Shown here: positions 53,648 to 64,000 of the stretch, piece after piece | Layout of the letters: each line of letters opens with the position of its first letter | How positions within the stretch are numbered: position 1 is the stretch's first letter | DNA from: Thiothrix litoralis | GTDB lineage: Bacteria > Pseudomonadota > Gammaproteobacteria > Thiotrichales > Thiotrichaceae | DNA length: 64,000 bases | Reading direction: 5' to 3' | NCBI RefSeq assembly: GCF_017901135.1 | Contig: NZ_CP072801.1 | Span: 124,001-188,000 of the forward strand | Program-made: the position numbers and the translations under genes | The notes under the pieces: model-generated | What the model saw: only the letters and a program-made list of their open reading frames with translations | What the model was told of the DNA's origin: nothing | The model's database searches: none

Positions 53648-54148
53648 ATGATGATGGATAACGTAAATCTCCAGTTACTGGAGCAAGTGAAAGATACTTG
53701 CCCGGAATTCTGTGCGGCTTTGACCGACGGTGAAATTGCCAAGTTTGTGGCGTTCACTCGACTTCGTGAATTGGGTTCCCAGGAAGTTGTGGCTGATATT
53801 GGTGAAGTCAGTGACCGCTTTTATTTGGTGATTGGTGGCGCGGTCAAGCTATTGCACGTCGATGGTGAGCGCGAGTTTGAAGTGGGGCAGGTTGAGCCGG
53901 GTGGTTTAGTGGGTGAAATGTCCTTCTTTGACAAACAACCTCGCACAGTACGCCTGCGGGCGCGGCGTAGCGGGGTACGTTTGCTGGAAATCAGCCGCCC
54001 CATGTACAACCGTCTGCGTATTGCAGAACCGTATATTGCCACTAATTTACTGGAATTCGTGGTGCGCAGTCTGGACTGTTTGGTGCGTCATCTGAGTGAT
54101 GAAAATGCCAAGCTGCACAAGCAAGTGACAGGTCTTGGCTACCGCTAA
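53648..54148 (+). CDS. Cyclic-nucleotide-binding (CRP-like) domain protein
   Basis: 166 residues. A single beta-roll cNMP domain (SDRFYLVIGGAVKLLHVDGER, GGLVGEMSFFDKQPRTVRLRA with a GE...RT stretch close to the phosphate-binding cassette) and a C helix (LLEFVVRSLDCLVRHLSDENAKL). There is no HTH, so it is not a DNA-binding regulator by itself. A TATAAT at 53614-53619 could drive it. It sits directly before sctK and may relate second-messenger level to the type III system, but that is inference. Confidence 0.8.
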   Translation: MMMDNVNLQLLEQVKDTCPEFCAALTDGEIAKFVAFTRLRELGSQEVVADIGEVSDRFYLVIGGAVKLLHVDGEREFEVGQVEPGGLVGEMSFFDKQPRTVRLRARRSGVRLLEISRPMYNRLRIAEPYIATNLLEFVVRSLDCLVRHLSDENAKLHKQVTGLGYR

Positions 54149-54240: not shown

Positions 54241-54936
54241 ATGAACCCAACCGATCATTTCGATATTACAAATGAGCTGTCACAGGCGGTGTGGCGCTTT
54301 AATTTCCGCCCAGACTCCTACCTGCACGCCAGTTGGCTGGCAACCATGCCGGATGGTCAGGTCATGCAAGCATTGTTTGGGCAAACACGCGGTGAAGGCC
54401 GTTTGGTGCAGCACATGATGCAGCGCCTTGGTTTGCGCGACAGCGTATTTTTCGATTTCAGCAAGCCGCTGTCACGTCTGGCTTTGTGGCGTGGGCAAGA
54501 ATTGGAACAATTGATTCTGTACTTGGGTGCAGTGTTTCATTTTCAGGCATTGCGGCGCATCGTTACCCGTGATGACCTGCTCAAAGTCCAGCAATTATTG
54601 GGTGATGACCTTTACCGTTTTCTGCAACAGCGAGCACCGTTGTTAACCCACAATGTGACCACGGAGATTGCTTTCCCCGCGCACATGGGTTTGAAGAAGC
54701 GTTTTGCATTAGCAGGGATGTTGTGTTTGCGAGCCGCGTTTGCTGATTACCCGTCTGCTTTCTGGAAACGGCTGGCTTACAAGCTGGAGCGCGAGTTTTA
54801 CGTCTTGTGGAAACGCCATGCTAAATGTGGGGCGGAGATGGATACCCAAACCGCTGAATGTGCTGTTCTGGTACAAAAAGTTGCGATAGAAATCAAAATG
54901 GGAGTCAGCCGCGATGGCAAAATTCTTTTCAATTAA
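54241..54936 (+). CDS. sctK: Type III secretion sorting-platform protein SctK
   Basis: 231 residues, without TM segments. The start (VWRFNFRPDSYLHASWL) is the conserved opening of YscK/PscK-type proteins, and LEQLILYLGAVFHFQALRRIVTRDDLLKVQQLLG corresponds to their central helical region. SctK links the cytoplasmic SctQ-SctL pods to the inner ring. It overlaps sctL by 23 bases, the expected order. Assignment rests on these motifs and on context; the family is poorly conserved. Confidence 0.78.
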   Translation: MNPTDHFDITNELSQAVWRFNFRPDSYLHASWLATMPDGQVMQALFGQTRGEGRLVQHMMQRLGLRDSVFFDFSKPLSRLALWRGQELEQLILYLGAVFHFQALRRIVTRDDLLKVQQLLGDDLYRFLQQRAPLLTHNVTTEIAFPAHMGLKKRFALAGMLCLRAAFADYPSAFWKRLAYKLEREFYVLWKRHAKCGAEMDTQTAECAVLVQKVAIEIKMGVSRDGKILFN

Positions 54937-55531
54937 GCCCGTGGACACGCAATTACGTGCGGATCAAAAAGTCCTGAAAGCGGCTGATTACGAGCAACTG
55001 GTGGATTATGACCGCATGGCGTTTGAGCTTCAGCACCGCCATCGTCAACGCGAAGAAATTGTTTCCGTGGCCTTGGGGCGTTCCATCAAACGTGGTCTGG
55101 AGCAGGGGCGGGAACGTGCCGACAAGGAAGCAGCGGAAAAAATGATACTGTTTGCCGGGCGGGTGAACGATACCCTGATGATGCTGGAAGGTGAGTTGGA
55201 AGAGCTGGTGACGACCGCTGTCCGCAAAGTGATCCACAGTTTTGATGCCGACGAGCGCGTTAGGCAGGCCGTGTTAGGTGGGTTGGAACTGGTGCGGGGC
55301 AGCCACAAGCTGATGATCCGCGTACACCCGCAGCGGCAGGCCGCCATTTCGGAGCAACTGGATGCGATTCCGCACCGTTTCACCAGTCTGGAAGTGGTCG
55401 GCGATGATCAGGTGGCGGAAGATGGCTGTATTCTGGAATCGGATCTGGGGATCGTGAATGCTGGGCTAGAGCAGCAAATGCAGGTTATTGAACAGGCTCT
55501 TCGCGGGCACTTTTTGCGCCCTGAACTTTAA
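54914..55531 (+). CDS. sctL: Type III secretion stator protein SctL
   Basis: 205 residues. A charged helical N-terminal half (DYDRMAFELQHRHRQREEIVSVALG, then ERADKEAAEKMILFAGRV) and a C-terminal domain like FliH/V-ATPase E subunits (VRKVIHSFDADERVRQAVLGGLELVRG, LMIRVHPQRQAAI, DGCILESDLGIVNAGLEQQMQVIEQAL). SctL joins the ATPase SctN to the sorting platform. The 3' end runs 47 bases into the convergent sctO gene. Confidence 0.88.
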   Translation: MAKFFSIKPVDTQLRADQKVLKAADYEQLVDYDRMAFELQHRHRQREEIVSVALGRSIKRGLEQGRERADKEAAEKMILFAGRVNDTLMMLEGELEELVTTAVRKVIHSFDADERVRQAVLGGLELVRGSHKLMIRVHPQRQAAISEQLDAIPHRFTSLEVVGDDQVAEDGCILESDLGIVNAGLEQQMQVIEQALRGHFLRPEL

Positions 55532-55907
55532 TGATTTCCTTGAGTTTTTCCAGCTTCAGATTGGCTTCACTGGAGTTTTGTTGGGCTGTCTGAACCTGTG
55601 CTTCGGCAGCCTGCAAACCTTGATGTGCTTCAGCCAATTCTGCGCGTAGGCGTTCTTCTTCCTGACGCAAGTCTTCCAGATTTTTTTGGTAATCAAACAG
55701 CATTTGCGGGGCGAATGGCTGGTTTTTTAGGCTGGCGAACAGGGCTTCCTGATGTTCCAGCCGCCATTGCCCGAAACTGGCGAGTTGCTGTTCTTTTTGG
55801 TGCAGGCGTTGTTGTTGTTCCTGCAAGACTCGCCGCTGTTCCTGTAATTCAACGAAGCGTTGTTCCATACGGCGGGAACGGATGGTTTTTAATTGTTCCA
55901 GACTCAT
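55485..55907 (-). CDS. sctO: Type III secretion stalk protein SctO
   Basis: 140 residues from ATG 55907 (AGGA eight bases before it; a GTG 30 bases earlier lies within sctN). Nearly all helical with a long Gln/Glu-rich antiparallel coiled coil (RFVELQEQRRVLQEQQQRL, then EERLRAELAEAHQGLQAAEAQVQ), the shape of SctO/FliJ, which inserts into the SctN hexamer and couples it to SctV. It follows sctN directly, as usual. Confidence 0.82.
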   Translation of the reverse strand: MSLEQLKTIRSRRMEQRFVELQEQRRVLQEQQQRLHQKEQQLASFGQWRLEHQEALFASLKNQPFAPQMLFDYQKNLEDLRQEEERLRAELAEAHQGLQAAEAQVQTAQQNSSEANLKLEKLKEIIKVQGAKSAREEPVQ

Positions 55908-55912
55908 GGTGC

Positions 55913-57247
55913 TTATCCTGCCAGTTGCGTCAGCCACTTGACGGTATCGTCAAAGCTGGAATATTCGTGTGAAGGCTGTTTGAGGAAACGCAGAATTTCG
56001 TCCATTTTGCGGATGGCTTCGTCTGCCAGCGGGTCAGAGCCGTGTTTGTATTCACCGACCCGCAGCAAAAATTCGATTTCCTTGTGTTTGGCCAGCAGGG
56101 TGCGCAGGTGGGCGGCGGCGGCGCGGTGTTGTGGGCTGACCAGTTGCGGCATGATACGACTGAGGCTTGCCAGCACATCGACGGCCGGGTAGTGGTTGCC
56201 TGCGGCAAGGTCACGCGACAGCATGATGTGCCCATCCAGCAGCGAGCGCACTTCATCGGCGATCGGGTCGCTCATGTCGTCGCCTTCCACCAGTACGGTG
56301 TAAAATGCGGTGATGGAGCCTTTATCAGAGTTACCGGCGCGTTCCACCAGTTTGGGCAGTTCCGAAAAGACCGAGGGTGGAAAGCCGCGCCGTGCCGGGG
56401 CTTCACCGGCTGCCAGCCCGATTTCGCGTTGGGCGCGGGCAAAACGGGTGAGGGAGTCCATCAGCAACAGCACCCGGTTGCCTTTGTCACGGAAGTATTC
56501 GGCAACAGCGGTGGCAACGTAAGCGGCTTTGAGGCGTTCAATCGCGGGGCGGTCGGAGGTGGCAACAATCAGCACGGTTTTTTGCATCCCTTCTTCACCG
56601 AGCGCTTCTTCCATGAATTCGCGCACTTCACGTCCGCGTTCGCCGATCAGGGCAACGACGTAAACGTCAACCTCCGCGTGTTGCACCAACATGCTGAGCA
56701 GGGAGCTTTTGCCGACGCCTGCACCCGCAAACACGCCGATGCGTTGCCCGATACCGCAGGTGATGAGCGCATCCATTGAGCGTATGCCGAGTGATAATGG
56801 GGTGCTTACCCGGTCGCGTGACAAGGGGTCGGGGGGCGAGGCATAGATGGGGTAGTGTTCCGTGAAAGTAGGCATGGGTCTATCAGGATTTTCTTGCACG
56901 CGCCCGATGCCGTCGAGTACGCAACCGCGCAGGTGTTCACCGACACCAACTTCGAGCATTTTGCCGGTGGTAATCACTTGGGTGTGGGCAGACACGCCCT
57001 GCATGTCACCGATGGGGGCAAGTAAGGCGATGTTTTGCTCAAAGCCGATGACTTCAGCGGGAATCTCACGCGAATCGCCGCTGTTTTTCAGCATACACAA
57101 TTCGCCGAGTTTCACGCGGGGGACAATGGCGCGTACCACGGTTCCGGTGACTTGCACAATGCGCCCGTGCAGTACCAGCGGGGTGCAGTTGTCCAGATGG
57201 TTGCGCATCCGTTCCGTCACATGGCTTAAGGGGGTACGTGGTCTCAT
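55913..57247 (-). CDS. sctN: Type III secretion ATPase SctN
   Basis: 444 residues, full length. F1-beta-like: Walker [16 protein letters not shown], arginine/GER loop [16 protein letters not shown], Walker [26 protein letters not shown] and the T3SS-type [15 protein letters not shown]. It unfolds and strips chaperones from effectors. The start overlaps the sctV stop by four bases (ATGA). Confidence 0.95.
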
Positions 57248-59298
57248 GTCAGGCGAATCTCCCCAGCAGGATTGAGGGAGACACTGGAAGTCAGTTCTTG
57301 CACAGAGATCACCGGGAGTTCCGGGTAACTGTTTTCCAGATGCCGCCGGATATGCCGCCGTAACTCCATATTGGTGAGGATCACCGGGCGTACCTTGTCC
57401 TTGGCGTGTTCGGATTCGAGTTCCCGCAAGGTGTTGGCAAAGCGCTCGGTAGCCTCAGGAGCCAGCGCAAAAAATACGCCATTCGGGGTTTGGCGCAGGC
57501 TGTTTTGCAGCAGCTTTTCGGTTTCGGGCGCGAACATGTAAACCGGCAATACCCCTGTACCGTTGGTGAAGGTGTAGGAAAGCTGGCGCTTGAGGCCGAC
57601 GCGCACCCGTTCTGCCAACATGCTGGTATCTTTTTCCGCTTCACCAAATTCCACCAGGGTTCCTAGAATCTGCCGCAGGTCGCGGATGGAAACGCCTTCG
57701 TTCAACAGGCGGCGGAATACATCGACCGTTTTGGGCGTGGTGACGGCACGTTGTACTTCCCTGACCAGCTCGGCGTAACTGGATTGTTCCAGTTTGCTGT
57801 ACAGGGTGTGTATTTCTTGTATGCCGATGAATTCAGACGCGTGCTTGCGCAGGATGTAAGCGAGATGGCGGCTGATGGCCTGGATATTGTCGGGGGCAGG
57901 GCGTGTGCCACCGGTAACTATATCGCTTCCGGCTTTGTCTGTCGCTGGTTTGGCTAACTCTACGCCTGTGGTATTGGCAGAGGTGGGTTGAAGATTGCCT
58001 TGGGCAACGGGTATGCCCCGGATGGAAATCTGGTAGTTGTCATTGCTGAGACGTGATGACAGACGCACGCTGATGCCGGGCAATGGAACGCCCATGTCCT
58101 GATAGAATTCACGGCGGATACGCACGAATTCCAGATTCAAGGTATCCATTGAAAACAGGTTTTTGGCTTGGGCGGGTAATTCCACTAGCGCGGGTGACAG
58201 GGGTTGCATGTCTTCCAGAGCTGCTTTGGCATCGCTACCACCAGCCAGTTGTGCTGCGGCACCACCGGCTTCTTGTTGCCCGATGACGGTGGTGATTTCT
58301 GCGTCGGAAAATGCCATCTGGTGCTGCACCTTGCGCAAGGCCATACCCGTAACGCCCAATAATATCCCCAGAAACAGGAAAATGACCGTTGGGAAACCGG
58401 GGATTAGCCCCATCGCGGCAACAATGCCCGCAGCACCGAGCAAGGCGCTGGGTTGGGCGAGTATTTGCCCGCCAATGTCACTACCCAGATTGGCATCGTC
58501 TTCACCCCGGACGCGGGTGACAATGATACCGGCAGTGATGGAAATAAACAGCGCGGGTATTTGTGACACCAGCCCGTCACCAATGGTGAGGATGGAATAC
58601 AGTTCTAATGCATCGCCCATTGCCATGCCGCGTTGCATCGTGCCGATGGACAAGCCGCCAATAATATTGACCATGATGATGATCAAACCGGCGATGGCGT
58701 CGCCTTTGACGAATTTCATCGCGCCATCGAGTGCGCCGTATAACTGGCTTTCTTTTTCCAGATTGGAACGGCGCTTCCGGGCATCGACAAGGGTGATCAG
58801 GCCAGCACGCATGTCGCTGTCAATGCTCATTTGTTTGCCGGGCATGGCATCCAGTGAGAAACGCGCGCTGACTTCGGCAATACGTTCCGAGCCTTTGGTG
58901 ATGACGATGAATTGCACGATTGTGATGATCAGGAAGACGACCAAACCTACAATCAGGTTGCCGCCTACCACGAATTCCCCAAAGGTCTGGATAATGTGCC
59001 CAGCGTCTGCTTCCAGCAGGATCAAGCGGGTAGTCGCGATGCTGAGGGAGAGCCGGAACAAGGTGGTCAGCAGCAGAATCGAGGGAAAAGACGAGATGGC
59101 CAAGGGGTGGGGGATGTAGATCCCCAGCATCATTAACAGGATGGCAATGGTCATGTTCAGGGCGATCAGCATATCCATGACCAAGGTGGGCATGGGCAGG
59201 ATCATCATGGAAATGATGGCCACCAGCAACAATGCCAGCACCACATCGCTGCGCTTGGTTAGCGAGTTGAGAAGGTCTTGTGATTGGCTGGATTGCAT
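57244..59298 (-). CDS. sctV: Type III export gate protein SctV (FHIPEP family)
   Basis: 684 residues. Eight TM helices in the first 330, including the family loop [37 protein letters not shown]; the cytoplasmic ring domain follows (about 360-684; [24 protein letters not shown]). SctV forms a nonamer that receives substrates and couples proton flow to export. It is followed by sctN in the usual order. Confidence 0.95.
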
Positions 59299-59328: not shown

Positions 59329-59865
59329 TTATGTGGCTTGGCTTAGGGGCGTGATGTATAAGGTTCTGTCATTGATAGCTACGATCCTCGCTTGGGTTCC
59401 TGCTGGGCAATCCGTTCCGGCAAGCTGCCATTCCAGATTATCTAAACGAATGCTGCCGCTACCATCCACCACAGGTTGTTCCAGCGTAACGACTTGCCCG
59501 ATAAGCTGTTTGCCGGGGTATTCGGTGAAAACCCGTTTCAGCGACTTGAACAAGTCAGCCAACAAGGGGGCGAGCAGGACGCAGACCAGTACCAGTAAAA
59601 ATTGCCAGCGCCACAAACCGTCGGGGTTGAGCAGCATCAGCAAGCCGGTAATGCCTGCCCCAATGCCCAGCCAGGTTTCCCAGCCAGCCATGAAACGTTG
59701 CTGGTATTGCTTGACCAGCCCGGCCTTGTGTTTCAGGTGCTGGGTAGCGCGGAAAATGGCGTAATGTGTTTGTGCCCGCAAGTTGGTGCGTCTGAATTCC
59801 GCCCAGCCGTTTTTTACGCGCTGGAGAAAGGTCGTAGGCTGATTGTCTGGTTCCATACGTTTCAC
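59329..59865 (-). CDS. NfeD-like membrane protein inside the type III operon
   Basis: 178 residues (GTG 59865 overlapping the sctU stop; ATG 59856 is an alternative). A basic, soluble N-terminal part of about 60 residues (RVKNGWAEFRRTNLRAQ, RATQHLKHKAGLVKQYQQRF) precedes two closely spaced TM helices (about 68-100) and a C-terminal OB-fold region of about 60 residues resembling NfeD: QLIGQVVTLEQPVVDGSGSI, then DCPAGTQARIVAINDRTLYI. NfeD-type proteins organise membrane microdomains with stomatin/flotillin partners. I know of no standard T3SS component of this kind; the tight linkage to sctU and sctV suggests a role in the export gate. Confidence 0.7.
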   Translation of the reverse strand: MKRMEPDNQPTTFLQRVKNGWAEFRRTNLRAQTHYAIFRATQHLKHKAGLVKQYQQRFMAGWETWLGIGAGITGLLMLLNPDGLWRWQFLLVLVCVLLAPLLADLFKSLKRVFTEYPGKQLIGQVVTLEQPVVDGSGSIRLDNLEWQLAGTDCPAGTQARIVAINDRTLYITPLSQAT

Positions 59866-60920
59866 TGTTTGACTTGCCCCTGCGTCTGGCGGAGCAGGTT
59901 TGCAATTTTGTTAATGGTTTTTTCCGGTATGTATTGGTCAATTTTGCCCTCGCTAAGCAAGTCATCGACCAAAATAGGGTCACTAACCACAGGAACATTT
60001 TCCAGGGTGGCGATTTCCACCATTTTCCGGGACATATTATTTTTACCAATGGCCACAATGATGGGTAGTGGTGTCACGCCTTGTTCGTATTGCAACGCAA
60101 TGGCTATACCCATGTCGAGGATAAGCAGCCGAGCGGTGCGGATACGCTTCTGGATGTCTTGCTCGGATAGCTCCCGGCGGATGCCTTGGCGGGCGGCACG
60201 GACGTGGGGGTCGCCAAAAATATCCTTCATTTCCTTTTTGACTTCTTCCTTGGTCATGCGCTGGTCTTTGGTGAATTGTTGGCGCTGGAACAGGAAGTCG
60301 ACCACCGCCATGATGATCAGCATGGGTACAATGAATAGCATCAGTTGGCGAACCAGATGTTCAATAACTTCTTTCTGGCATTCGACGTTACATTGTTTGA
60401 TGGCATGGAGCAGTTCGCTGATGCCAGTCCGTACCACAAATAACAGGATAACACCGACAATCAGGGTTTTGAGTAAGGCTATCAGGGTGGTGACGAATTG
60501 CTTGGCAGAAAATATCCGCTTGAACCCGCTGGTAAAGCTGATTTTTGAGGGGCGTGGAATGATGGGGTCAAAGGAGAATACAAAACCAGTCTGGATAATA
60601 CTGCCGAGAATGCCAGAAATGACGGTCATCATGGCGAAGGGGATGGCGATACTGTACAGGGCATTTTCCATCACGGCTTTGAAGCCAAGATCCAGCGCCT
60701 GTGGAAACGGCATGGTGTAAAGCCTTGGGATAATATCGAACATTTCCATGAATTTGGCGAAAACCCAGTCCCATGCCGCAAAAAAGTACAGGACAACAAA
60801 TAGCATGGTTAGCGCCGCCGATACGTCGTTACTGCGGGCAACCTGGCCTTTCTCGTGGGCTTTTTTGAGTTTGCGCGAACTCGGTTCTTCGGTTTTTTCT
60901 TGGCTGCTGTCTTCGCTCAT
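59862..60920 (-). CDS. sctU: Type III export switch protein SctU, lacking the NPTH cleavage motif
   Basis: 352 residues, standard length. Four TM helices in residues 30-210 after the basic opening EEPSSRKLKKAHEKGQVARSNDV, a linker helix TKEEVKKEMKDIFGDPHVRAARQGIRRELSEQ and the cytoplasmic domain. In place of the family NPTH, the strand reads ARLLILDMGIAIALQYEQG, i.e. LDMG at 60108-60119; the following PLPIIVAIGKNNMSRKMVEIATLENVPVV is otherwise well conserved. NPTH self-cleavage normally sets the switch from needle to effector export. The frame is intact, so this is a substitution, not damage. Confidence 0.92.
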   Translation of the reverse strand: MSEDSSQEKTEEPSSRKLKKAHEKGQVARSNDVSAALTMLFVVLYFFAAWDWVFAKFMEMFDIIPRLYTMPFPQALDLGFKAVMENALYSIAIPFAMMTVISGILGSIIQTGFVFSFDPIIPRPSKISFTSGFKRIFSAKQFVTTLIALLKTLIVGVILLFVVRTGISELLHAIKQCNVECQKEVIEHLVRQLMLFIVPMLIIMAVVDFLFQRQQFTKDQRMTKEEVKKEMKDIFGDPHVRAARQGIRRELSEQDIQKRIRTARLLILDMGIAIALQYEQGVTPLPIIVAIGKNNMSRKMVEIATLENVPVVSDPILVDDLLSEGKIDQYIPEKTINKIANLLRQTQGQVKQ

Positions 60921-61699
60921 CGTAGTAGGGCATCCAGTAACGGCAGGTTGTTCCCCATCTTGAAGAACCCCTCTTTCAGGTAGTCCGCCAAAAAGCTGAT
61001 GTAGAGCGTTAGCATGAAAAACGTCAGGCCACTTTTGACCGGCATGGCGGCGAGGAACACGTTTAATTGGGGGAGGAAGCGTCCCACTATGCCAAGCCCA
61101 AAGTCGACCAAAAACATAGCACCAAGGAATGGTCCAGCGATGAGAACGCTGGTATACAGCAGCAGATCCAGTTGCTGGAGAAAGAATGTCGTCACTTCCA
61201 GAGTAATGCGTGGGTAAAACTGGTCGATCGGCCAGGTTTGGTAGCTAAAGTAGAGGGTTTGCAACAAAATCAAAAAGCCACCGGATACCAGTAGCAGTGT
61301 GGTCAGCAGCAGGCTGAACAAGCCACCCAACGGCGATACCATATTGGCGGTGACGGGTGAGAAAAACAGGGCGCTCATGACCCCGCGTTGCATATCAATC
61401 AGGAATCCGGCAGCTTTTACCGCCCAAAAAGGTACGCTCAGGGTGTAACCCAATAACAGCCCGATGACGCCCTCTTTGACTAAAATGCCGAGCAGGTGAA
61501 GCATATCCAGTTCAATATTCAGAAATTGCTCGTGTGTCAGTGGCAGGATGAATAGTGACATGATCATGATGATCCCGTTGCGCAAGGTACGCGGTACGAT
61601 GGGATCTGTCAGGATGGGGAGCAAGGCGAATGCCACCAGTATTCTGGGGGCGGTCAGTGCCCAAGCCAGCAACCACGAATGAAGGGCATCCGTTTCCAT
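60917..61699 (-). CDS. sctT: Type III export apparatus protein SctT
   Basis: 260 residues from ATG 61699; an in-frame extension upstream is inside sctS. About seven TM segments of SpaR/YscT/FliR type: LLAWALTAPRILVAFALLPIL, GYTLSVPFWAVKAAGFLIDMQRG, FLVDFGLGIVGRFLPQLNVFLAAMPVKSG. It forms part of the SctRST export pore and contacts SctU. It overlaps sctS by one base (TAATG) and sctU by four. Confidence 0.93.
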   Translation of the reverse strand: METDALHSWLLAWALTAPRILVAFALLPILTDPIVPRTLRNGIIMIMSLFILPLTHEQFLNIELDMLHLLGILVKEGVIGLLLGYTLSVPFWAVKAAGFLIDMQRGVMSALFFSPVTANMVSPLGGLFSLLLTTLLLVSGGFLILLQTLYFSYQTWPIDQFYPRITLEVTTFFLQQLDLLLYTSVLIAGPFLGAMFLVDFGLGIVGRFLPQLNVFLAAMPVKSGLTFFMLTLYISFLADYLKEGFFKMGNNLPLLDALLR

Positions 61700-61971
61700 T
61701 AGTGATGCCGCACCAGAGGGATTTGATCGAAAGCATTCTGAGTGAAAGTGAGGAGTTCTGGCCCTAGCCAACGCACGGTGGCGGCTAGAGCCAGCATGGT
61801 GACAACCAGTTTGAAGCCATGCGGCAGGGTTTGTTCCTGAATTGAAGTCAGTGCTTGCAGCAAACCGATCAACAAGCCGACGATGGTGGCCGCAATGATG
61901 GCTGGCAACGACAGGTACAGGATCAGTTGCATCGCCAGCGAGGTGTTGTGGATGATGTCGGTTTCATTCAT
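61699..61971 (-). CDS. sctS: Type III export apparatus protein SctS
   Basis: 90 residues with two TM helices (about 15-38 and 50-72) and the family loop GLLQALTSIQEQTLPHGFKL. Four copies join SctR and SctT in the pore in known systems. It lies between sctR (four bases upstream) and sctT. Confidence 0.95.
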   Translation of the reverse strand: MNETDIIHNTSLAMQLILYLSLPAIIAATIVGLLIGLLQALTSIQEQTLPHGFKLVVTMLALAATVRWLGPELLTFTQNAFDQIPLVRHH

Positions 61972-61975
61972 GGCG

Positions 61976-62629
61976 TCAGTAACTCAGTATCAGGCCGTGG
62001 ATCAGGCGTGACCAGCCATCCACCAGCACAAACAGCAATAGCTTGAAGGGCAGGGAGATCACCATCGGGGACAACATCATCATGCCCATTGACATCAACA
62101 GGTTGGAAATCACTAGGTCAATGACCACGAATGGCAGAAAAATCAGGAAACCTACCTGAAAAGCATTGGTCAATTCACTCACCATGAAAGCGGGGATGAG
62201 CACCAACAGGTGATCAGTGGTGATGTCTTTTGCGTATTTTTCTGGCCATAGCTTTTGGGTGGTTTGCGTGAAAAATTCGCGTTCACTGTCACTGGAATGT
62301 TTGGTCAGGAATTGCCGCAAGGGGTCAGTGCTGCCTTCTAGCGCATCAATCAGTTGCGGGTTACGGATGTCCTCGATGGAGACGCCGTGGGTATTGAATT
62401 GTTCGTAGGTTTCCATCACCACCGGTGCCATGATGTACATGGACAGAATAATGGCAATGCCACTGATGGCAATGTTGGGTGGTTCCTGTTGCAAGCCCAA
62501 AGCACTACGGATGATGTGCATCACCACCACCAGCTTGACGAACGAGCTAACCATGATCGCAATGAAGGGCGCTAGCCCCAGAATCGTCAGGATGGCTAGC
62601 AGTAGAATGGGATTGGGCATACCCTCCAT
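61976..62629 (-). CDS. sctR: Type III export apparatus protein SctR
   Basis: 217 residues, typical length. Conserved FliP/SctR segments: SSFVKLVVVMHIIRSALGLQQEPPN, the periplasmic loop and IPAFMVSELTNAFQVGFLIFLPFVVIDLVISNLLMSMGMMMLSP. Five SctR subunits form the core of the export pore. Confidence 0.96.
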   Translation of the reverse strand: MEGMPNPILLLAILTILGLAPFIAIMVSSFVKLVVVMHIIRSALGLQQEPPNIAISGIAIILSMYIMAPVVMETYEQFNTHGVSIEDIRNPQLIDALEGSTDPLRQFLTKHSSDSEREFFTQTTQKLWPEKYAKDITTDHLLVLIPAFMVSELTNAFQVGFLIFLPFVVIDLVISNLLMSMGMMMLSPMVISLPFKLLLFVLVDGWSRLIHGLILSY

Positions 62630-62631
62630 GC

Positions 62632-63690
62632 CTAACTGCCCTTGGCTTTTTTGTTGAACAGGTTGAGGATGCGCACCCCAACCCTGCCGTTGATTTCGAC
62701 CAGTTCCCCTGTGCCGATCAAACGATTTTGGGAGCGTATCTGGATGATTTCCGGTAATGATTTGCCAAGTTCCAGAACATAGCCAGGGCGTAATTGGCGC
62801 ACTTCATTGAACGACAAGGTTTTTTCGCCAACATCAAAGGAAAGTTGCACGGGGATTTGGCTGACGTGTTCTATTTTTTGCTGTTGTTCATTGTCGGTCA
62901 TAGTCATCCACTCGGTGTTGATAGTCAGGGTTGAGGGTGTCGTTTGGTTGAGGGTCGCTTCGCAGTAATAGCCTGAATTGAGGCGCAATTTGAGTAAATT
63001 CTCGTTCTCAAAACGGGTGTCTTCCAGCAGGATCAGGTCAGACGGTTGTAACTGGTTGATCTCCTGCATGGTGAAAACAATGCGGCTAATCTCTAGCCAT
63101 GCCGGGGTGAGATGTTCTTCCCAGTCAGGGTTGGTATCCGACTGCCAGTGGCGCAGGCGTTCTTGTAGATGTGGGTAAATATGTGGATCCAGCATCAGCA
63201 GGGCAGAAATCGTCTGTTGTACGTTGTCACTTTCCTGATCAAGGATTTGGATTTCAAAACCCAGTGGCATGTTGTAGAGGGGGCTTTGATGCTCAGCAGT
63301 AGTGCCTTGCACAGTTATTGTTAGCCCCAATGCCTGTTCCGCCTGCTGTAACAAGGGGGCGAGGGCGCTTTCAATAATGCTGATGGTTAAATTTTCAGGC
63401 AATTGCTGCAACAGGCCATCGGGTACGAATTGGCGTATTTGTTCAATGAGCGGCCATTCGGACAGCCATAAACCAGCGGTAGTGTTGCCTAATTCCAGTG
63501 TCAGACTGATGGGGCAAAGGCTCTGGGTGCTGCTGTCGGCGGGTTGTAGTCGGAATCGGGCAGTACGTTTTTCGTCCAGTTGAAAGCTGAGGGTGCTGGT
63601 TTTATTCAATAGGATATTATTCAGGCGTACAGCTAGTGCTGCCTGACTGGGAAATTTGATCGGGATGATCTGGGACTGCCGGTTTTCCAT
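62632..63690 (-). CDS. sctQ: Type III sorting-platform protein SctQ
   Basis: 352 residues from ATG 63690; an upstream GTG (63765) has no ribosome site. The C-terminal SpoA domain is clear (about 275-350: VQLSFDVGEKTLSFNEVRQLRPGYVLELGK, RLIGTGELVEINGRVGVRIL); the N-terminal 260 residues are as variable as in other SctQ proteins. SctQ with SctK and SctL forms the cytoplasmic pods that select substrates. The gene is first of the minus-strand run visible here. Confidence 0.9.
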   Translation of the reverse strand: MENRQSQIIPIKFPSQAALAVRLNNILLNKTSTLSFQLDEKRTARFRLQPADSSTQSLCPISLTLELGNTTAGLWLSEWPLIEQIRQFVPDGLLQQLPENLTISIIESALAPLLQQAEQALGLTITVQGTTAEHQSPLYNMPLGFEIQILDQESDNVQQTISALLMLDPHIYPHLQERLRHWQSDTNPDWEEHLTPAWLEISRIVFTMQEINQLQPSDLILLEDTRFENENLLKLRLNSGYYCEATLNQTTPSTLTINTEWMTMTDNEQQQKIEHVSQIPVQLSFDVGEKTLSFNEVRQLRPGYVLELGKSLPEIIQIRSQNRLIGTGELVEINGRVGVRILNLFNKKAKGS

Positions 63691-63823
63691 TATGGTTATT
63701 ATCCTGAGCGCTACCTGTACAGCAGCAGGGCATTGTTTATTGCTGAAAACGTGCAATAGCGGCACTGAGTCTGCCGTCGTATCAGGTAGACTTCAAGCTT
63801 ATTCAGGCTATGCGGTGTCAATA

Positions 63824-64000
63824 TCAGACCGAACGGTTTGAGTCCCAGCTTTGCAGGCGTTCACTATTCGGGTTGACGTTTACCGCACCTAAGTAATAGC
63901 CCTTGAAGGTGTCTTGCGGGAGCCATGAGTTTTCGCCAAACCTGATGTCCACATTGCCGATATTGGTGCTCCAGAAACGGTAAGAGCCATCATCATTACG
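63824..64000 (-). CDS. C-terminal end of an unidentified protein (start outside window)
   Basis: On the minus strand the frame is open from the window edge to a TGA at 63824-63826, giving 58 residues: a beta-rich, Asn/Gly/Ser-rich text with SYRFWSTNIGNVDIRFGENS and PQDTFKGYYLGAVNVNPNSE. Base composition and codon use look coding. I do not recognise it. It precedes sctQ by 133 bp on the same strand. Confidence 0.55.
   Translation of the reverse strand, partial: RNDDGSYRFWSTNIGNVDIRFGENSWLPQDTFKGYYLGAVNVNPNSERLQSWDSNRSV

What the first reader, a model, noticed from the sequence alone, without database searches (positions are those of the whole stretch)
59862..60920. SctU without the NPTH self-cleavage motif
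The sequence shows LDMG exactly where SctU, FlhB and relatives carry NPTH (between RLLI and IAIALQYE), in an otherwise complete, in-frame protein. In known systems, cleavage between N and P is needed for the switch from early to late substrates (established). The rest of the operon is intact and its genes overlap, so this is not decay. The system may be locked in one export mode, use another switch, or depend on the neighbouring NfeD-like protein. This is a real candidate for an undescribed type III variant.
Basis: partly seen in the sequence, partly recalled or inferred. Interest (0 to 1): 0.8.

Follow-up and report, generated by a model that had tools for sequence, protein, structure and literature searches.

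The report
Type III secretion without its switch
A sulfur bacterium and its relatives keep a type III protein-export machine whose gate protein has lost the self-cutting site thought to be needed for switching cargo, together with other switch parts and most of its outer-membrane channel, which makes it a natural test of whether that switch is needed at all.

Summary
The window's SctU (59862-60920, minus) is intact and has no NPTH; in the best alignment the loop is one residue shorter, Asp-269 stands at the catalytic Asn and the Pro is deleted. This is family-wide: 38 of 38 Thiotrichaceae rows that cover the loop lack Asn-Pro, and dN/dS to the nearest relative is 0.07. Outside the family 37 of 41 sampled SctU/FlhB keep it. 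The rest of the machine is reduced in the same direction: no SctP or SctW over cut-off in any of 63 family genomes, SctC cut down to its N-terminal domains, and only GspD, GspD and PilQ as secretins in the genome. SctE, a SctG-like and a SctI-like protein and a fast-evolving small ORF at the needle position remain. Best reading: a single-chain, switch-less SctU in a secondarily simplified injectisome. It is not unique: rhizobial and Halomonas T3SS, including RhcU of NGR234 pNGR234a, also lack NPTH, which argues against a strictly locked early mode. One or several losses: unresolved. New variant of a known kind.

The parts
59862..60920 (-). SctU/FlhB homologue, 352 aa, no NPTH
   Evidence: predicted cytoplasmic fold matches mutant (single-chain) EscU domains, rmsd 1.0-1.3 A over 90-96 columns
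60108..60119 (-). LDMG (aa 268-271) in place of NPTH; loop one residue shorter, predicted as a tight hairpin turn between strands 265-269 and 272-277
59329..59865 (-). NfeD-like protein, overlaps the SctU stop by 4 bases; next to SctU in 20 of 25 family loci
   Evidence: PF01957 32.5 bits, cut-off 29.1
57244..59298 (-). SctV, export gate ring
   Evidence: TIGR01399 789 bits, over cut-off
55913..57247 (-). SctN, ATPase
   Evidence: TIGR02546 625.6 bits, over cut-off
55485..55937 (-). SctO, stalk
   Evidence: PF07321 43.2 bits, over cut-off
54914..55531 (+). SctL, stator
   Evidence: TIGR02499 87 bits, over cut-off
54241..54936 (+). SctK, sorting platform
   Evidence: PF06578 84.5 bits, over cut-off
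60917..61699 (-). SctT (ORF opens at 61771; the ATG at 61699 is my choice)
   Evidence: TIGR01401 210.6 bits, over cut-off
61699..61971 (-). SctS
   Evidence: TIGR01403 91.3 bits, over cut-off
61976..62629 (-). SctR
   Evidence: TIGR01102 267.6 bits, over cut-off
62632..63765 (-). SctQ, C-ring-like
   Evidence: TIGR02551 102.3 bits, just over the cut-off of 100.8
63824..64000 (-). 3' end of a transglutaminase-like gene (PF20085) that runs past the window (genome 187824-189113). Beyond it, still in the cluster: SctC N-terminal piece, SctD, SctE, a 62-aa ORF, a TPR protein at the SctG place, a SctI-like protein, SctJ (genome 189175-193547)

Best explanation
The protein is a genuine SctU homologue of a non-flagellar type III secretion system that runs without the early/late substrate switch. 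SHOWN: the Asn-Pro site is absent throughout the sampled family, the loop is one residue shorter and predicted as a tight hairpin, the protein is under strong purifying selection, no ruler (SctP) or gatekeeper (SctW) passes its cut-off in any family genome, and SctC is reduced to its N-terminal (ring-docking, recalled) domains. INFERRED: SctU stays one chain and is a permanent, permissive part of the export gate. With no ruler to read and no gatekeeper to release, the machine exports its few substrates (the SctI-like rod protein and the small fast-evolving ORF at the needle position, kept soluble by SctE and the SctG-like protein) without a hierarchy. Lacking its own secretin barrel it either ends in the periplasm or borrows another outer-membrane route.
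For: No Asn-Pro in 38 of 38 family rows. 47 versus mostly 48 residues across the loop. dN/dS to L005 0.066 for SctU, 0.072 for its cytoplasmic part. SctU is below NCBI's SctU cut-off while SctR, S, T, V, N, J, D, Q and L pass theirs. AlphaFold model (mean pLDDT 82.4): best PDB matches are EscU P263A, N262A and N262D domains (partly because these are one chain). SctP over cut-off in 0 of 63 family genomes, SctW in 0 of 63 (39 of the 63 carry this SctU), while the same models pass in NP-bearing relatives: SctW 6 of 8, SctP 4 of 8, against 0 of 10 each in NP-less relatives outside the family. SctC piece of 215-267 aa in 13 of 13 family loci where the gene was found, of 25 searched. The genome's three secretins are GspD, GspD and PilQ. 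SctE by HMM; a SctE-like ORF and a 62-104 aa ORF at the needle position in 14 of 14 loci.
Against: No biochemistry: cleavage at another site is not excluded. The needle-position ORF and the SctI-like protein match no model. SctP and SctW are weakly conserved, so absence by HMM may miss diverged forms; sub-threshold matches exist (23 and 13 of 63 genomes at E <= 1). Two NPTH-bearing rhizobial plasmids (W04, W05) also show neither SctP nor SctW, and G578 and W10 no SctP, so the link is loose; W09 (NP-less) has a sub-threshold SctP match (E 0.005). Translocators were not searched genome-wide. NGR234 lacks NPTH yet is described as secreting Nops, so lack of NPTH need not mean a reduced substrate range. 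The co-occurrence is not phylogenetically independent.
Confidence: 0.6

Rival explanations
1. A rhizobial-type working injectisome: SctU needs no cleavage, late substrates are still exported, and the outer membrane is crossed through a separate secretin (here one of the GspD or PilQ proteins) docking on the SctC N-terminal piece, as RhcC2 complements RhcC1 in rhizobia.
For: SctC N-piece plus a separate secretin in Halomonas-like L110 and Phyllobacterium L114; NPTH-less RhcU in NGR234 pNGR234a; [quoted passage not shown] etli (PMC3574062, passages; PMC3973906, passages).
Against: No secretin-domain gene in or near the cluster: the genome has three, all elsewhere, and they score as GspD, GspD and PilQ well over cut-off.
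Confidence: 0.25
2. SctU is processed at another site or by a protease, possibly with the neighbouring NfeD-like protein, and the switch is kept in altered form.
For: NfeD next to SctU in 20 of 25 family loci; NfeD proteins are recalled as partners of membrane proteases and stomatins.
Against: No protease recognised by eye among the cluster ORFs; no ruler or gatekeeper found.
Confidence: 0.1
3. A decaying remnant on the way to loss.
For: No secretin barrel, SctP or SctW; SctJ is short.
Against: dN/dS 0.06-0.09 against L005-L008 (dS near saturation for L007 and L008); much the same gene order in the family loci long enough to show it; present in 39 of 63 family genomes.
Confidence: 0.04
4. Assembly or sequencing error.
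For: None.
Against: The same loop in other Thiothrix genomes under separate records (L034-L038).
Confidence: 0.01

Closest known systems
SctU/FlhB (YscU, EscU, Spa40, HrcU), the autocleaving switch protein
   Same: Whole-length homology (PF01312), same cytoplasmic fold by model
   Different: No NPTH, loop one residue shorter, below NCBI's SctU and FlhB cut-offs
Rhizobial Rhc T3SS (NGR234 pNGR234a and pNGR234b) and Halomonas-like relatives
   Same: NPTH-less SctU, SctC N-terminal piece in the two checked, L110 and L114, no SctP over cut-off in the records tested and none reported
   Different: Those have a separate secretin (RhcC2); the Thiotrichaceae have none in the cluster and keep a C-D-E-(F)-G-I-J order with an NfeD gene
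R. etli CIAT 652 type (Rhc subgroup III)
   Same: Only RhcC1, no RhcC2, as reported in PMC3574062; HrcU without NPTH because it ends before the loop
   Different: There the C-terminal part of SctU is missing; here it is complete and conserved
Myxococcales secretin-less NF-T3SS
   Same: No secretin barrel in the system (PMC3459982, PMC9380563, passages)
   Different: Described there as an early-branching form; here an SctC remnant is left and the family falls among injectisome rows. No Myxococcales sequence was compared here.
T3SS of R. gallicum M101, R. etli IE4803 and B. diazoefficiens NK6 plasmids
   Same: Nearest rows in the SctR+S+T tree (L119, L122; 99.9/100)
   Different: NPTH present. 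R. gallicum: annotated SctW and YscF-type needle. R. etli IE4803: annotated SseC-like translocator, LcrH-type chaperone and a 700-aa secretin-family protein, though no SctW over cut-off on that plasmid

Membership tests
SctU/FlhB protein family (homology) | PF01312 domain over cut-off, full length | tested here: met
SctU/FlhB protein family (homology) | Fold of the cytoplasmic domain | tested here: met
   predicted model only
NCBI equivalog 'SctU' (TIGR01404) | Score over the curated cut-off of 358 bits | tested here: not met
   277.2 bits
Autocleaving FlhB/YscU switch proteins | NPTH (at least Asn-Pro) in the loop | tested here: not met
Autocleaving FlhB/YscU switch proteins | Actual self-cleavage | not testable with these tools
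   needs protein chemistry
Injectisome (needle T3SS) | Core SctJ, N, Q, R, S, T, V over cut-off, plus a SctU homologue | tested here: met
Injectisome (needle T3SS) | SctC with secretin barrel | tested here: not met
   only the first 142 of 463 positions of the SctC model; other genomic secretins are GspD/PilQ
Injectisome (needle T3SS) | SctP ruler | tested here: not met
   0 of 63 over cut-off
Injectisome (needle T3SS) | SctW gatekeeper | tested here: not met
   0 of 63 over cut-off
Injectisome (needle T3SS) | SctF needle | tested here: inconclusive
   no PF09392 match over cut-off in the genome; SctE found and a variable small ORF at the right place
Injectisome (needle T3SS) | Translocators | not tested
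   none recognised by eye in the cluster; no genome-wide search
Rhc T3SS | RhcC1-like SctC N-piece | tested here: met
Rhc T3SS | RhcC2 Tad-type secretin | tested here: not met
Rhc T3SS | Shared ancestry | tested here: inconclusive
   SctU tree yes, 94/84; SctRST tree no; AU tests mixed
Myxococcales secretin-less NF-T3SS | No secretin homologue at all | tested here: not met
   SctC N-terminal piece present
Myxococcales secretin-less NF-T3SS | Early-branching position | tested here: inconclusive
   family falls among injectisome rows, but no Myxococcales sequence was in the trees

The most novel reading that the evidence does not exclude
The Thiotrichaceae carry a secondarily simplified injectisome that has discarded the whole switching module (NPTH, SctP, SctW) and its outer-membrane barrel, and now works as a one-mode exporter that builds a short rod or pilus ending in or just beyond the periplasm. 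More broadly, NPTH loss marks T3SS lineages, including model rhizobial systems, in which substrate switching is absent or works on a different principle.
Probability: 0.35. Interest if true: 0.78.

Novelty: new variant of a known kind. Interest (0 to 1): 0.62.

Why it matters
Work on model pathogens has made autocleavage at NPTH look like a general requirement for the change from early to late substrates (Shigella Spa40: PMC3542141, passages; others recalled). Here is a conserved lineage that does without the site, and the same absence turns up in RhcU of NGR234, a genetically tractable symbiont described as secreting Nops through its T3SS. Comparing the two makes it directly testable whether cleavage is the switch itself, a permissive maturation step, or only needed where a ruler and gatekeeper exist. 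The family also shows an injectisome left with only a stump of its own outer-membrane secretin, a state otherwise discussed for R. etli and, without any secretin, for Myxococcales.

Tried and rejected
A second canonical SctU or FlhB in the genome: none. A hidden SctC barrel: the three PF00263 proteins are GspD, GspD and PilQ. A known needle in the genome: one PF09392 match, E 1.66, under cut-off, in an 826-aa open frame. PHROGs for the transglutaminase-like and NfeD-like proteins: nothing at E <= 0.01.

A single origin of NP loss: favoured by the SctU tree (94/84; also 94 of 100 bootstrap trees) but not by SctR+S+T, where the Thiotrichaceae and L064 join NPTH-bearing L119/L122 at 99.9/100. AU tests: SctRST rejects one NP-less clade that includes L066 (p 0.031) but not one without L066 (p 0.169); SctU with the loop masked rejects neither the single NP-less clade (p 0.512) nor the family joined to L119/L122/L125 (p 0.158). 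Left open. Rows dropped before trees: 11 of a pool of 68 (redundant family rows, and long branches L069 and L075); 26 of a pool of 65; I chose 35 loci of those held and L115 fell out because no R/S/T was found in it. L040 matched only beyond the loop and was not used. The outgroup sample is biased to best matches: I fetched 20 of 29 non-family places listed and 20 of the 48 further places listed.

Papers: searches. 'RhcU' with 'NPTH' gave 0 papers; Thiothrix or Thiotrichales with T3SS gave nothing on point by title and abstract; NfeD with T3SS likewise. The library holds only open-licence PMC papers, so 'not reported' is limited to that. Of the papers cited I saw passages only.

Full report
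1. Observation. The ORF at 59862-60920 on the minus strand codes a 352-aa SctU homologue with LDMG at residues 268-271 and no NPTH. It is the only PF01312 protein found in a one-contig genome of 4,284,843 bases in which the window is C1:124001-188000. It scores 277 bits against NCBI's SctU model and 245 against FlhB, both under the cut-offs of 358 and 349, whereas SctR, S, T, V and N from the same cluster pass their non-flagellar cut-offs. Relatives at 58-90% identity are named Thiothrix in five records (L034-L038), and NCBI places Thiothrix in Thiotrichaceae; that the window and the tool's family f1 are Thiothrix and Thiotrichaceae is my inference.

2. Family-wide. A search of 63 genomes, all of the window's family, found this SctU in 39, in 6 of 8 genera. 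Of 39 distinct rows, 38 cover the loop and none has Asn-Pro; the other (L057, G037) is split and its second piece was not read. The loop reads LDM[GS] in the Thiothrix rows, [IV]DIG in two other genera, and [VA]G followed by a variable pair elsewhere. From K232 to Y278 there are 47 residues in the 31 family rows of alignment A2 and in L064; of the other 22 rows 19 have 48, two (L077, L079) 49 and one (L066) 47. So the best register is N to Asp (or Gly) with Pro deleted.

3. Constraint. dN/dS of SctU is 0.066 against L005, 0.089 against L006 and 0.057 against L007 (dS near saturation for the last); the cytoplasmic part gives 0.072, 0.055 and 0.038. The 23-residue stretch at the motif is too short to weigh (0 to 0.29). 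The gene is maintained, not decaying.

4. Structure. An AlphaFold2 model from 54 rows (mean pLDDT 82.4, pTM 0.54) has strands 265-269 and 272-277 with a tight turn at the motif. Foldseek's best PDB matches are EscU P263A, N262A and N262D domains, 1.0-1.3 A over 90-96 columns; YscU N263A/N263D mutants also match but at 8-10 A over longer alignments, and native domains follow. Mutants rank first partly because they are one chain. The Asn chemistry is recalled. That N257A in Shigella Spa40 blocks autocleavage and switching while early substrates still go out is from PMC3542141 (passages, abstract included).

5. The machine. The cluster runs past the window to genome position 193547: SctK, L, O, N, V, NfeD, U, T, S, R, Q, a transglutaminase-like gene, a SctC N-terminal piece, SctD, SctE, a 62-aa ORF, a TPR protein at the SctG place, a SctI-like protein, SctJ. 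HMM support. The SctI-like protein has no HMM match; I name it by place and by its C-terminus. The order C-D-E-(F)-G-I-J is that of ysc clusters (recalled). In 14 of 14 loci examined for the SctD-SctG gap, the window's own included, there is a 65-72 aa SctE-like ORF and a variable 62-104 aa ORF at the needle place. Only the window genome's SctE was tested by HMM (PF08988, 31.9 bits, cut-off 22).

6. What is missing. The SctC piece covers 142 of 463 positions of the SctC model: an N0 domain over cut-off, a Secretin_N (N1) match that is over cut-off in L049 but weak elsewhere, and a short DUF4124-like tail, over cut-off in L042 and L049 but below it in the window genome and L034. Of 25 family loci 13 showed the gene, all 13 as a 215-267 aa ORF (alignment); the window's own ORF is 276 aa, or 225 from a likelier start. 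The other 12 loci are mostly short contigs. The genome's only secretin-domain proteins are two GspD and one PilQ. SctP (PF09483) passes its cut-off in 0 of 63 family genomes, with sub-threshold matches in 23 (best E 0.02). SctW (PF07201) passes in 0 of 63, sub-threshold in 13 (best E 0.012). No SctF model match over cut-off.

7. Context outside the family. Of 41 other SctU/FlhB rows (20 of 29 places from the class search, 20 of 48 from the phylum search, one Planctomycetota) 37 have Asn-Pro and 4 do not: L064, L066, L067, L088. L067 is 92% identical to a Halomonas plasmid protein. Plasmid records then gave NPTH-less SctU in 6 of 6 rows (L113-L118), in 3 of 10 (L120, L121, L126; 5 of 10 have NPTH and 2 of 10 end before the loop) and in 5 of 5 (L129-L133). 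L129 is RhcU of NGR234 pNGR234a. These plasmid rows were picked by me from best or spread hits and are not a random sample.

8. Co-occurrence. In 18 genomes or plasmid records tested together, SctW passed its cut-off in 6 of 8 with NPTH-type SctU and 0 of 10 without; SctP in 4 of 8 and 0 of 10. Fisher p is 0.0015 and 0.023, but the rows are related and the plasmid records are not whole genomes, so this is suggestive only. Two NPTH-bearing rhizobial plasmids (W04, W05) have neither, which weakens the rule. Gazi et al. 2012 state that the Rhc subgroups lack a hrpP/yscP-like gene, have a split secretin, and that in R. etli only rhcC1 was found (PMC3574062, passages); its text has no 'NPTH'. Tampakaki 2014 says SctP has not been identified in rhizobia (PMC3973906, passages). 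Abby and Rocha 2012 derive RhcC2 from Tad and RhcC1 from a truncated T3SS secretin (PMC3459982, passages).

9. Origin. The family with L064 is a firm clade. Its sister is unsettled: the SctU tree groups all NP-less rows (94/84), the SctR+S+T tree joins the family to NPTH-bearing L119 (B. diazoefficiens NK6) and L122 (R. etli IE4803) (99.9/100), and AU tests do not settle it. If the latter is right, systems of the sister group still have SctW and a YscF-type needle (annotated in R. gallicum M101) and an SseC-like translocator and a 700-aa secretin-family protein (annotated in R. etli IE4803), and the Thiotrichaceae lost such parts together with NPTH.

10. Mechanism. I think most likely that SctU here is a non-cleaving, permissive gate part in a T3SS that has no ordered substrate switch. 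Where the substrates go without a SctC barrel is open: periplasm, or another secretin.

11. Verdict. Observation confirmed, interpretation partly supported. A new variant of a known kind, with a wider pattern behind it that I did not find remarked on within the searches named in Tried and rejected.

Noticed in passing
window 63824-64000 and on (genome C1:187824-189113, L002:11825-13114 minus): A transglutaminase-like protein (PF20085, 84.8 bits) sits between SctQ and the SctC piece; tblastn finds it in 7 of 25 family loci. It could be a substrate or a cross-linker of an exported polymer.
   Followed up: partly
window 59329-59865: NfeD-like gene beside SctU in 20 of 25 family loci; role unknown.
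   Followed up: partly
L066:6746-9908: In an unnamed gammaproteobacterium an NPTH-less SctU is followed about 10 bases on by a secretin with a pilus-type N-terminus (PF13629 + PF00263) and a TPR protein, as if a pilus secretin had been taken into the T3SS operon.
   Followed up: partly
L128:1435-2232 (R. etli CIAT 652 pB): HrcU is 265 aa and ends before the NPTH loop; no C-terminal remnant found in the 1.4 kb held downstream. Several other Rhizobium plasmid hits also cover only the first part.
   Followed up: partly
L067:10741-14412 and L088:6398-10009: A protein of about 1,200 aa lies between SctT and SctU in both Halomonas-like genomes; the L088 one has no Pfam match.
   Followed up: partly
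L114:13098-13721 and L116:4015-4677: An annotated L,D-transpeptidase gene follows the NPTH-less SctU in Phyllobacterium and Ensifer plasmids.
   Followed up: no
genome C1:192945-193547 (L002:16946-17548): SctJ is only 200 aa and, by eye, has no C-terminal membrane helix, whereas SctJ of L064 has one.
   Followed up: no
window 53648-54148: A regulator-like protein with a cyclic-nucleotide-binding domain (PF00027) next to SctK, kept in Thiothrix loci L034-L037.
   Followed up: no
genome C1:2676982-2677479 (L063): A second GspD-type secretin besides the one next to a GspE-like ATPase gene.
   Followed up: no
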